Shown: one piece after another, positions 27,333-31,188 of the stretch
Position numbering within the stretch: the stretch's first letter is position 1
Layout: each line of letters begins with the position of its first letter
Origin: Bodo saltans
Taxonomy: Eukaryota > Euglenozoa > Kinetoplastea > Eubodonida > Bodonidae
Assembly: GCA_001460835.1 (NCBI GenBank)
Contig: CYKH01000141.1
Span: 2,518 to 37,296, forward strand
Direction: 5' to 3'
DNA length: 34,779 bases
Made by a program: the position numbers and the translations under genes
The notes under the pieces: model-generated
What the model was told of the DNA's origin: nothing
The model's input: the letters and a program-made list of their open reading frames with translations, nothing else
Database searches by the model: none

Positions 27333-29762
27333 ATGTCATCCCTTATCGAAACTGCTGCGGCAATCTCCCCGCAGTACGTCATCTCCTCCAACCGCGTGGT
27401 GCTTGGTGCTCCCCTGCATGCTGGTGGCAGTGATGGCCTCTACATGTACCATGGAGTGATGAAGACTGCTGGTCAGCCTGACCGCCCCGTTGCCATCAAA
27501 CGCCTCGTTGGGCTGAACGCTGCAGCCGTTGCTCGCCGCGAGGTGGCACTCATGTCCCTCCTTGAGCACAAGAACATTCTATCGATGATCGGGCTTGTCG
27601 ACATGAGCCCCTTCGAGTCGTATGTGCTGCTGGAACATCCGCAGCCGCAGCAGCCCAATGCTGGAGGAACCATGTTTCTGACCGCTTCAGTGCTCAGCAA
27701 CTTGCGCATTCGTCTTGGGTCTGCTCGCTACCTGTGCCAAGTTCTCCAGTGGGCACTCGAGGTGGTGGAGGGCTTACAACATTTACACGGAAAGGATGTG
27801 CTGCACTTGAACCTTCGATCATCGAGTGTCATCATCGTTGGTGGAGTGGCCAAGATCAATCCACTCGGTATCGCGCAACGGATGGTCGACATGTCGTACG
27901 CTGCGCCAGAAGTACTGCGAGCGTCCACAGTGTGCACCGATGTCTTCGGACTTGGGTGCTTGTTGTGTGAACTGCTGTGCGGACTGAGTCCGTGGGGAGA
28001 TAAAACTGGCAACGATGTGTTACGTGCTGCAAGCACTGCGAGCCCGGATTTCCTCACCTTGCTTTCGAATATGGCTGATGTCCCGGTAGAAGTTGCAGAT
28101 CTTGTGCAGAAGCTAGTGAACAGTGCTGCTCCACATCATCGTGGCTCACTGGAAAGCGTCCATCGTTGTCTACGGACTCTGCTTGCCACGGCCACCAGAG
28201 CTGCTGAACCACCGCAGCCTCTCCTGTCAGTGGGCCGTTGCTCATTACCGCCCGGTTGGCTGAACACCGTTGACGCAGCAAACTCACTGCATGACGCGTT
28301 GATGCGTCTCGTTGGGTGCCCCCTTCCTACTGGCCGCACTGACCTGCAGAGACACCACGCGAACCTCAATGCGAGGGAACTACAGTCACTGGAGACATAT
28401 GTCGGTTCCGCGATTGCTCACCTGTTTCCGGCCTTTGCCGCCAACTCTCAACAGTGGGACGATGCGTGCGCAATCATGCTGTACACTTGCGAGTCTCCTG
28501 TTTGCTACATGATCAACGGAATGCTGACGCAACGCGGCCGTATTGTTCAGGACCTGGGTCACGTGGCACCAATGGTTCGCCGCCTCTTCCGCGCATTCCG
28601 ACGCCTTGGCACTCCGTACAAAGGAAGGGCGTATCGAGTGATGTTTGCCGACACGCCGATGCTGACAGAACCGTATGCCAACTACAAAACGCATTTCGCG
28701 GAAGGAGCGCCCGTCAACTTCTACCAGTTTGCCAGCTTCACAACGTCAATAGAAGAGCTCTCGACCTTCACCGCTGCTCACAGACCAATGATCATCCTGA
28801 AATGCTCCGATGTGGAGGGCTTCGAAATCAACGCCTACAGTGACCAGCACTTCCAAGGTCGTTCAGAAGCTGAGGTGATCGTGTTGCCCGCATCATACTT
28901 CCGAGTGAAGTCTGCCCCTGATAAAATCAACGCCATAGTGATCGTTGAGCTCGAGTACATCGGGGATGCGTCAGTCGCCGCGTATTACGATGCTACTCTG
29001 CCCCGCCAACCAAATCAACATTTACCAAAGAAATGCTCGTGTGACAGTTCTCACCATTGGAAAGTTTCGTTCTCCGCCAACCCCCACGCTGTATTCGGCT
29101 TGTGTCACAACTGTATCGAGGACAAGTGGAAAATACTTGCAACGGCGTCGCAGCTTGCGTTAGATCACATCAGCCAGTCCGATGTCTACACCGTGTTTGA
29201 CGATCACGCAGCACGCAGTGGCTTCTCCCCAACACCGTGCACTCTGGCTCGTGGAGAGTCAATGGACCTTCTCGTGACCTCAGACGCACGTTCAGTGAAG
29301 CGCCTCCTTCTTCACGGCCCCTGCGCACCTTCCCACATCGCTAGCCTCGCCTCACTAACAGCACTCAAATTCCTCAGCATTCACGACGCAAGTCTCGCTG
29401 ACGCAGGCCTCGGTGCACTCTCAACACTGACGCAACTACAAAACTTGGACTTGTGGTGGTGCAGTGAAATCACTGACGCAGGCCTCAGTGCCATCGCAAC
29501 ACTGACGCAACTGCAACACTTGGACTTGAGGTGCTGCAGTAAAATCACTGACGCAGGCCTCAATACCATCGCAACACTGACGCAACTACAATACTTGTAC
29601 TCGAGTCACTGCAGTAAAATCACTGACGCAGGCCTCAATACCATCGCGACACTGACGCAACTGCAGCACTTGGACTTGAGCGGCTGCAGTAATGTCACTG
29701 ACGCAGGCCGCAAAACCATCTCCGCGCTCTTGCAACGCTCGAACTGCACTAGAGTAAACTGA
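27333..29762 (+). CDS. Pseudokinase / arginine-type ADP-ribosyltransferase / LRR fusion (809 aa)
   Basis: Three modules lie in one intact frame. Residues about 20-290 are a TKL-like kinase fold that keeps the VAIK lysine (K56), the alpha-C Glu, AAPE (190-193) and DVFGLG, but has HLN at 158-160 instead of HRD and no DFG, so it is a predicted pseudokinase. Residues about 375-560 match mono-ADP-ribosyltransferases of the R-S-ExE clade: R435 (RAYRV), S468 (SFTTS) and E512-x-E514. This clade transfers ADP-ribose from NAD to arginine. A Cys/His cluster (C568, C570, H574, H575, C591, C594) may bind zinc. Residues about 670-803 hold five cysteine-type LRRs of 25 residues. There is no signal peptide, so a cytosolic enzyme with scaffold and protein-binding ends is inferred. 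The substrate is unknown. Confidence 0.85.
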   Translation: MSSLIETAAAISPQYVISSNRVVLGAPLHAGGSDGLYMYHGVMKTAGQPDRPVAIKRLVGLNAAAVARREVALMSLLEHKNILSMIGLVDMSPFESYVLLEHPQPQQPNAGGTMFLTASVLSNLRIRLGSARYLCQVLQWALEVVEGLQHLHGKDVLHLNLRSSSVIIVGGVAKINPLGIAQRMVDMSYAAPEVLRASTVCTDVFGLGCLLCELLCGLSPWGDKTGNDVLRAASTASPDFLTLLSNMADVPVEVADLVQKLVNSAAPHHRGSLESVHRCLRTLLATATRAAEPPQPLLSVGRCSLPPGWLNTVDAANSLHDALMRLVGCPLPTGRTDLQRHHANLNARELQSLETYVGSAIAHLFPAFAANSQQWDDACAIMLYTCESPVCYMINGMLTQRGRIVQDLGHVAPMVRRLFRAFRRLGTPYKGRAYRVMFADTPMLTEPYANYKTHFAEGAPVNFYQFASFTTSIEELSTFTAAHRPMIILKCSDVEGFEINAYSDQHFQGRSEAEVIVLPASYFRVKSAPDKINAIVIVELEYIGDASVAAYYDATLPRQPNQHLPKKCSCDSSHHWKVSFSANPHAVFGLCHNCIEDKWKILATASQLALDHISQSDVYTVFDDHAARSGFSPTPCTLARGESMDLLVTSDARSVKRLLLHGPCAPSHIASLASLTALKFLSIHDASLADAGLGALSTLTQLQNLDLWWCSEITDAGLSAIATLTQLQHLDLRCCSKITDAGLNTIATLTQLQYLYSSHCSKITDAGLNTIATLTQLQHLDLSGCSNVTDAGRKTISALLQRSNCTRVN
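29397..29740 (+). repeat. Tandem 75-bp LRR-coding repeat
   Basis: The core CTGACGCAGGC starts one base after 29397, 29472, 29547, 29622 and 29697, an exact 75-bp period (25 residues), with much shared sequence between units such as ACACTGACGCAACT. Low divergence suggests recent expansion. The first unit is the most diverged. Confidence 0.9.
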
Positions 29763-29894: not shown

Positions 29895-31188
29895 ATGTGC
29901 AAGCAACAGTTTAAAAATAATAAATGTCGTCAGTCGCAACTCCAGTGTCGCAGCTGGACCCCAAACGAGATCAAGCAGGAGCTGAAGGTGACATACGACA
30001 TCACTGACGTTGCAGACGCCGACCTCGTTGCTCGCCTTGAAGAGAGCCGTGCAGCCCACGCTGAGGTCGTCAACGGACAACTTCGTTACGGCGCGGTCCT
30101 TCGTGTTGGCAACCGCTCCAACCCCACCGGTATTGTCACCATCGCACACGGCCTTGGAGATAGTGGCCGTGGTTGGGTAGATATTGCGCAAGACCTTGCT
30201 GCCCAACATCCTCATCTCCTTTTCCTCCTCCCCAGCTCCGGCACCATCCCGCTGACTGTCAACGGCGGGAACCCCATCAACGCGTGGTACGACGTGAAAG
30301 TGCGCGCCGCACTTGGCATCGGAGACCCAAACATTCTTGCCTCCGCAGCCTACGTGAGTTCAGTTGCGCGCCAAGCTGCCAACAAGTACCGCATTCCTCG
30401 GCATCACTGACGTTGCAGACGCCGATCTCGTTGCACGCCTTGAAGGGAGCCGTGCAGCCCACGCTGAGGTCGTCAACGGACCTCGTCGTTACGGCGAGGT
30501 CCTTCGTGTTGGCAACCGCTCCAACCCCATCGGTATTGTCATCATCGCACACGGCCTTGGAGATAGTGGCCGTGGTTGGGAAGACGTTTCGCAAGATCTT
30601 GCTGCCCAACACCCCCATCTCCTCTTCCCCAGCTCCGGCATCATCCCCCTGACTGTCAACGGCGGGAACCCCATCAACGCGTGGTACGACGTCAAAGTGC
30701 GCGCCGCTCTTGGCATCGGAGACCCAAACATTCTTGCCTCCGCAGCCTACGTGAGTTCACTTGCGCGACAAGCTGCCAACAAGTACCGCATTCCTACCAG
30801 CCGTATTTTGTTCTCCGGCTTCTCGCAGGGTGGAGCGCTGTCGGTGGCTGCCGGACTCACCGCGTCGTACCGTCCTGCTGCGATCCTTGTGCTGAGCAGC
30901 TACTTTGGTGTCTGGGACCACGTCATCCCCAAGATCACAAACCTCGATGTGCCCATTCTGTTTTGCCATGGCACGCAGGACAACATTCTGCCACTATCGC
31001 TTGCAGAGGCCAGCAAGGCGAAGCTCGGTGACCTTTGGGTTTAAAGACATTGGCCTGCGCACCTACCCAGTGGCCCCACTCAGTGCACCCTGAGGAGCTG
31101 AAAAGACGTGTCGGACTTCCTCGCAAAGCACTTACCAAAGGCATTGACCTCATCTCAATACCTCTCTTTACGAATAGGGAGGGAATGA
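29895..31188 (+). pseudogene. Acyl-protein thioesterase-like pseudogene with partial tandem duplication
   Basis: The sequence matches acyl-protein thioesterase / carboxylesterase serine hydrolases, which remove palmitate from proteins: IAHGLGDSGRGW, LTVNGGNPINAWYDV, nucleophile motif GFSQGG (near 30817-30831), HGTQD with the Asp, and a PHSVHPEE-like end with the likely His. The first copy (29895-30410) stops after KYRIP, where a second copy starts at 30402 with ITDVADADLV. Units 29999-30398 and 30402-30795 are near-identical, but unit 2 lacks 6 nt and its own ATG. After KLGDL the frame shifts about three times (near 31035, 31073 and 31102), each explained by one extra base in or beside a short homopolymer. 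The true start may be ATG 29924, with another shift near 29957. As it stands no full-length enzyme can be made. Confidence 0.8.

What the first reader, a model, noticed from the sequence alone, without database searches (positions are those of the whole stretch)
27333..29762. Pseudokinase, R-S-ExE ADP-ribosyltransferase and LRR joined in one intact protein
A kinase fold without HRD and DFG, an ART with all three R-S-ExE positions in place (R435, S468, E512/E514) and cysteine-type LRRs form one 809-residue chain. R-S-ExE ARTs are mostly known as vertebrate ecto-enzymes and bacterial effectors or toxins. A cytosolic kinase-like plus LRR arrangement in a kinetoplastid is unusual and suggests regulated ADP-ribosylation of an LRR-selected target.
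Basis: partly seen in the sequence, partly recalled or inferred. Interest (0 to 1): 0.8.

Follow-up and report, generated by a model that had tools for sequence, protein, structure and literature searches.

The report
Pseudokinase–ADP-ribosyltransferase–LRR protein family in Bodo
A free-living flagellate, Bodo saltans, carries a family of large proteins that join a dead kinase, an ADP-ribose-attaching enzyme whose active site looks intact in most readable copies, and swappable recognition repeats like those of immune receptors; whether they work as enzymes is untested.

Summary
The 809-residue frame 27333-29762 is intact and codes for a kinase fold without HRD or DFG, an R-S-ExE ADP-ribosyltransferase (ART), and cysteine-type LRRs. 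Pfam scores the ART below its cut-off (16.4 bits against 22.3), but the ART part alone folds at pLDDT 83.6 and pTM 0.83. Its first 37 Foldseek PDB matches (E up to 0.0046) are ARTs by title or recall; the next has E 1.1.

Near relatives are named Bodo saltans. In that genome the pseudokinase-ART core is joined to LRRs, ankyrin or ARM-like repeats. R, S and ExE are all present in 7 of 10 copies readable there; two of the seven (C178, C327) are broken genes. Three copies lack the full set. None of 8 copies with a readable kinase-like part has complete HRD or DFG. The window's LRRs are about as close to those of two NACHT-LRR proteins of the same genome as to those of its ART paralogue.

Best reading: a cytosolic, probably active arginine-type mono-ART, controlled by a pseudokinase and aimed by exchangeable repeats. 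Activity, target and expression are untested.

The parts
27333..29762 (+). Whole gene, 809 aa: pseudokinase - ART - Cys motif - LRR
   Evidence: start ATG agrees with relatives
27372..28208 (+). Kinase fold without HRD/DFG (residues 14-292): K56 kept, HLN at 158-160, PLG at 177-179, APE at 191-193
28245..28967 (+). R-S-ExE ART domain including its helical N-terminal part (residues about 305-545)
   Evidence: model pLDDT 83.6, pTM 0.83; Foldseek and VIA; Pfam below cut-off
28635..28637 (+). R435, the R of R-S-E
28734..28736 (+). S468, the S of R-S-E (S-F-T)
28866..28874 (+). E512-A-E514, the ExE of the ARTT loop
29034..29114 (+). C-x-C ... C-x2-C motif (C568, C570, C591, C594), possible zinc ribbon; P0002 has C-x2-C ... 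C-x2-C in this region
   Evidence: pLDDT under 50 here, so no fold is claimed
29250..29759 (+). Cysteine-type LRRs (residues about 640-809)
29398..29720 (+). DNA tandem array of the LRR unit, period 75, 4.3 copies, 87% matches

Best explanation
The gene encodes a cytosolic, probably active, arginine-type mono-ADP-ribosyltransferase. Shown by computation: three folds in one intact frame, the complete R-S-ExE set, a degenerate kinase in all 8 copies where it can be read, and different C-terminal repeat types on related cores. Inferred: the LRRs (ankyrin or ARM-like repeats in relatives) bind a ligand or substrate; the pseudokinase, which should not do ordinary phosphotransfer, holds or releases the neighbouring ART like an allosteric switch; once released, the ART moves ADP-ribose from NAD+ to an arginine of the captured or nearby protein (E512 choosing arginine, E514 catalytic). 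Copies that lost motif residues would be regulators, decoys or decaying genes.
For: Intact frame and motifs. ART fold and ART-only profile hits. Full R, S and ExE in 7 of 10 readable copies, the motif columns among the 44 best of 224 with no row dropped. Constraint on both parts: codon positions 1/2/3 differ 0.42/0.32/0.65 in the kinase part and 0.35/0.21/0.60 in the ART part against C657. HRD or DFG complete in 0 of 8 copies, the window included. Different repeats. One ADP-ribosylglycohydrolase match and three macrodomain matches in the genome, so erasers of ADP-ribose may be present.
Against: The ART scores below Pfam's curated cut-off, and its PDB matches are only 7-20% identical. Profile hits weaken to E 0.0035 and above when the C77 ART is left out. 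Three of 10 readable copies lack the full motif, and two of the seven with it (C178, C327) are broken genes, so activity is not kept everywhere. Nothing tests NAD+ binding, target, expression or contact between pseudokinase and ART; the full-length model has pTM 0.36 and says nothing about domain packing.
Confidence: 0.5

Rival explanations
1. NLR-like innate immune receptor with ADP-ribosylation (or NAD+ consumption) as output: the variable repeats detect a pathogen or prey signal, and the ART is the executioner. A more specific form of the best explanation.
For: Repeat type varies on a related core. The window's LRRs are 51-55% identical to LRRs of two NACHT-LRR proteins of the same genome; 4 of 9 NACHT matches lie in frames that also carry LRRs matching the window, paired by contig and frame length. 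A broken ART paralogue and a NACHT-LRR gene lie on one 14.4-kb contig, C178. The LRR array is internally duplicated.
Against: LRR, ANK and ARM repeats occur in all kinds of proteins; there is no NACHT in the window protein. The closest LRRs found are on C301 (60% protein identity), whose N-terminal part is beyond the contig start, not on a NACHT protein. The NACHT profile also rings in 11 of 14 control genomes, over the cut-off in 3. No infection, expression or diversity data.
Confidence: 0.25
2. Catalytically dead scaffold: both enzyme folds are pseudo-enzymes, and the protein works by binding only.
For: The kinase is degenerate in all 8 readable copies; three copies also lack the full ART motif.
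Against: The window copy and six others have R, S and both E, although the domain has diverged to about 49% mean identity to the window among rows without the two degenerate ones.
Confidence: 0.15
3. Decaying or assembly-affected gene family: the window copy is a by-product of repeat expansion without a function of its own.
For: Several relatives are broken or cut by contig ends and gaps: C327, C40, C251, C178, C657. The gene just downstream in the window is a partly duplicated, broken-looking esterase.
Against: Window frame fully open, motifs intact, codon-position pattern of constraint.
Confidence: 0.08
4. Not an ART: chance motif match in a different fold.
For: Pfam score below cut-off.
Against: Fold and profile searches return ARTs.
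Confidence: 0.02

Closest known systems
R-S-E (ARTC-like) mono-ADP-ribosyltransferases: ART2.2, HopU1, PAAR-protein ART (6drh), XopAI, Vis
   Different: 12-19% identity to these; they are secreted, injected or surface enzymes (recalled), here the domain sits inside a pseudokinase-LRR protein
LRRC9-ART family (LRR-ART-LRR), PMC7955679, passages seen
   Same: ART-like domain next to LRRs in one eukaryotic protein; the authors suggest a defence role
   Different: LRRC9-ART has a divergent active site and is thought most likely a pseudoenzyme; no kinase domain in the passages seen; here R-S-ExE is intact
NACHT-LRR (NLR-type) proteins, including those of the same genome
   Same: C-terminal LRRs of the same cysteine type, 51-55% identical
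   Different: No NACHT in the window protein; kinase-like and ART domains instead
SidJ-SidE pair of Legionella (pseudokinase-fold enzyme acting on an ART protein)
   Same: Pseudokinase fold and ART fold in one regulatory unit (recalled; SidE and SdeC appear as ART fold matches)
   Different: Separate injected proteins; here both folds are in one chain of a free-living flagellate
Bodo 'receptor-type protein kinase' genes with LRR listed in the 2008 survey (PMC2621209, passages seen)
   Same: Same annotation name as P0002; LRR plus kinase label in Bodo
   Different: No ART is mentioned in the passages seen; whether they belong to this family was not tested

Membership tests
R-S-E ADP-ribosyltransferase (PF01129 type) | ART fold | tested here: met
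   model; first 37 PDB matches (E up to 0.0046) ARTs by title or recall, next E 1.1
R-S-E ADP-ribosyltransferase (PF01129 type) | R, S and ExE at the motif positions | tested here: met
   R435, S468, E512/E514
R-S-E ADP-ribosyltransferase (PF01129 type) | Pfam PF01129 score over the curated cut-off | tested here: not met
   16.4 bits (whole protein) and 19.9 (ART part) against 22.3; relatives C756 (22.7) and C77 (27.7, 25.4) pass, C893 is at the edge (23.0, 21.8). Membership in the Pfam family is therefore not claimed; membership in the ART fold is
R-S-E ADP-ribosyltransferase (PF01129 type) | NAD+-dependent transfer to arginine | not testable with these tools
   needs purified protein
Protein kinase, active | HRD and DFG aspartates | tested here: not met
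   HLN and PLG
Protein kinase fold (pseudokinase) | Kinase fold and Pfam Pkinase | tested here: met
NLR (NACHT/NB-ARC plus LRR) | NACHT or NB-ARC NTPase domain | tested here: not met
   none in the Pfam scan of the 809-aa protein
LRRC9-ART family | LRR-ART-LRR order | tested here: not met
   order is pseudokinase-ART-LRR; no LRR found before the ART
Cysteine-type LRR | Repeats of about 25 residues with the C..ITDAGL pattern | tested here: met
   75-bp unit; LRR_6/LRR_4 hits; FBXL2 best PDB sequence match E 6.5e-20

The most novel reading that the evidence does not exclude
Bodo saltans has a lineage-specific, NLR-like immune receptor family in which interchangeable LRR, ankyrin or ARM-like sensors release, through a pseudokinase switch, an intracellular R-S-ExE ADP-ribosyltransferase that modifies invader or self proteins. 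It would be a further domain solution beside NACHT/NB-ARC and TIR for NAD+-based cell defence, in a protist.
Probability: 0.2. Interest if true: 0.88.

Novelty: new variant of a known kind. Interest (0 to 1): 0.6.

Why it matters
R-S-ExE transferases are best known as secreted toxins, injected effectors and vertebrate surface enzymes (recalled). Here one sits inside a eukaryotic multi-domain protein, next to a degenerate kinase and to recognition repeats that differ between family members. If active, it gives a tractable free-living relative of trypanosomes in which regulated arginine ADP-ribosylation, pseudokinase control of a second enzyme, and the origin of repeat-based recognition could all be tested.

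Tried and rejected
Relatives outside Bodo: three searches of 5.8 billion proteins. One search (whole protein; only the 7994 candidates sharing most words were scored) gave 5 hits: 2 Bodo, one Gemmataceae MAG kinase-LRR protein and two JGI proteins named for cyclase/TPR and kinase/caspase-like; none of the three has PF01129 among its listed domains. One search (ART region) gave 2 hits, both Bodo. One search (ART profile) gave 1 hit, Bodo. All three are word-seeded, so distant relatives can be missed. Bacterial and archaeal genomes (76 pattern matches, 0 relatives), viral contigs (10 matches, 0; 5 matches, 0) and phage records (none) also gave nothing. Metagenome contigs were not scanned.

A giant-virus origin was considered, because the best viral fold match is an Edafosvirus ankyrin-repeat protein (E 2.8e-8). 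No sequence relative was found in viral contigs, so it is not claimed.

Papers, all 10 searches: (8 papers; 0; 6; 2; 18, 12 listed; 11; 4; 8; 51, 10 listed), 95 (2). No listed title or abstract start describes this protein or architecture. Papers opened, passages only: PMC7955679 and PMC2621209, PMC11281641 and PMC3482391, PMC11631190 (there 'nacht' matched an author's name). No paper was read whole; subscription papers are mostly not held.

The full-length fold (pTM 0.36) was not used for domain packing. The 6e-5 chance figure was set aside as partly circular, because the two degenerate rows had been left out before the count; one search replaces it. PHROGs gave only a weak hit (E 0.62). NCBIfam gave only kinase, LRR and XopAI resemblances far below cut-off.

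Full report
What is there. The window lies in a 29.3-Mb genome held as G000. Near relatives of the protein are named Bodo saltans, so the host is taken to be Bodo saltans or something very near. The frame 27333-29762 is open for 809 codons. Pfam finds Pkinase at residues 51-274 (E 5.4e-17) and LRR families at about 665-800; ART PF01129 at 376-541 scores 16.4 bits against a cut-off of 22.3. The database names of the two close relatives are 'receptor-type protein kinase' and 'serine-threonine protein kinase'; neither names an ART.

The family. Searches with the whole protein (82 matches, most of them in the LRR range), the ART part (17 matches) and PF01129 (2 matches) give these copies. C657: pseudokinase-ART, then an assembly gap, then LRR. 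P0002: ART-LRR with no kinase, from a 4171-base contig not recognised in G000. C893: pseudokinase-ART with a separate ankyrin frame upstream. C178: kinase-like-ART in two frames with an ankyrin frame upstream. C756: ART at a contig start. C87, two copies: kinase remnant, degenerate ART, ankyrin. C40: pseudokinase, degenerate ART in another frame, ARM-like repeats. C327: ART in pieces, the same repeats. C251: pseudokinase pieces at a contig end. C77: an ART over the Pfam cut-off in a protein without a recognised kinase. 'ARM-like' is by eye; Pfam gives only Cnd1 at 21.2 bits, under its cut-off, and C40 and C327 match each other there. C104 gave one 48-residue match and C178 one further 36-residue match; neither was examined.

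The motif across copies. R, S and ExE are all present in 7 of the 10 copies readable over all of them: window, P0002, C893, C756 and C77 in open frames, C178 and C327 in broken ones. Three lack the full set: one C87 copy lost all four residues, the other C87 copy keeps only S, and C40 has lost R, S and the first Glu while a Glu may remain at the second place. C657 keeps R and S and its ExE falls in the gap; C251 and C104 were not readable or not read there (C327 and C40 by eye). With all 10 rows of A6 kept (C40 and C327 are not in A6), the most common residue holds R 6 of 8, S 8 of 9, E 6 of 8, E 6 of 8; 44 of 224 columns are as well conserved, so four named columns would all be among them with chance about 0.0013, relatedness ignored. 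In A6 the R of C77 is misaligned to a gap; A2 aligns it.

Selection. Window against C657: codon positions 1, 2 and 3 differ at 0.38, 0.27 and 0.62 of 467 aligned codons; kinase part 0.42, 0.32, 0.65 (258 codons); ART part 0.35, 0.21, 0.60 (185 codons). Both parts are constrained, the ART more.

The repeats. The LRR DNA is a 75-bp unit, 4.3 copies, 87% matches, so it probably expanded fairly recently. Among the relatives compared, the closest LRRs are on C301 (60% at best; 79-88% in DNA pieces of C301 and C200), a contig that starts inside the array, so its N-terminal part is unknown. Next come two very long proteins on C355 (51-55%) and C178 (52-53%), then C462 (47-48%) and the ART paralogue P0002 (46-53%). 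By Pfam the C355 and C178 proteins carry NACHT matches (C178 33.0 bits, over the 26.7 cut-off; C355 19.6, under it) and LRRs. The genome has 9 NACHT matches, 7 over the cut-off; the same profile rings in 11 of 14 control genomes, over the cut-off in 3. Four of the 9 (C331, C178, C620, C355) lie in frames that also carry LRRs matching the window, paired by contig and frame length. Repeats of one type resemble each other easily, so this shows a shared repeat type in NLR-like and ART proteins, not proven exchange. The C40 repeats give 75 matches in the genome.

Between ART and LRR. Residues 568-594 hold C-x-C and C-x2-C, and P0002 has C-x2-C pairs in the aligned region (37% identity over 89 residues). 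A zinc ribbon is possible; the model is below pLDDT 50 there.

Erasers. One ADP-ribosylglycohydrolase match (C77:8906-10291, E 5.0e-39; control genomes 5 of 14) and three macrodomain matches (control 8 of 14) are present. PF01129 rang in 0 of 14 control genomes. The hydrolase lies on the same 22.8-kb contig as the C77 ART. A reversible ADP-ribose system is possible, but nothing links it to the window protein.

Mechanism and limits. Shown: folds, motifs, family, different repeats on related cores, constraint. Inferred: activity, arginine target, pseudokinase control, recognition by the repeats, cytosolic place. Transcript data, relatives in other bodonids and biochemistry could not be tested. 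No protein outside Bodo with this combination was found, and none of the ten paper searches listed one describing it.

Noticed in passing
window 29895-31044: Two partly duplicated esterase frames (acyl-protein thioesterase-like, name by eye) follow the ART gene; both look broken. A 364-aa relative, also named by eye, follows the NACHT-LRR frame on C355 (L035 7461-8552).
   Followed up: partly
L035 250-6843 (C355), L036 2243-8434 (C178): NACHT-LRR proteins of 2198 and 2064 aa in a kinetoplastid; 9 NACHT matches in the genome, 7 over the cut-off. Of the 2 papers with 'Bodo saltans' and 'nacht', one matched an author's name and the other, titled on a malaria parasite protein, was not opened.
   Followed up: partly
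L024 1-1986 and L060 1063-3141 (C77): An ART over the Pfam cut-off (27.7 bits) and the genome's only ADP-ribosylglycohydrolase match lie about 12 kb apart on one 22.8-kb contig.
   Followed up: partly
L033 478-1281 (C893), L022 1-297 (C178): An ankyrin frame sits just upstream of the pseudokinase-ART gene at both loci (C178's called ankyrin by eye), a possible two-gene cassette.
   Followed up: no
L034 3024-4307 (C462), L038 1482-3352 (C499), L031 1350-1847 (C200): The family's pseudokinase N-lobe runs straight into LRRs with no C-lobe and no ART; in one frame on C462 and C200, in two frames on C499. May be shuffled genes or assembly joins.
   Followed up: no
L019 679-3606 (C87): A degenerate ART-ankyrin protein with a P-loop-like stretch (PPGAGKS) between ankyrin blocks, seen by eye and not found by Pfam.
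   Followed up: no
A0A3G4ZWG2: Best viral fold match of the ART model is a 1428-aa Edafosvirus ankyrin-repeat protein, recalling the ankyrin-linked ART copies of Bodo.
   Followed up: partly
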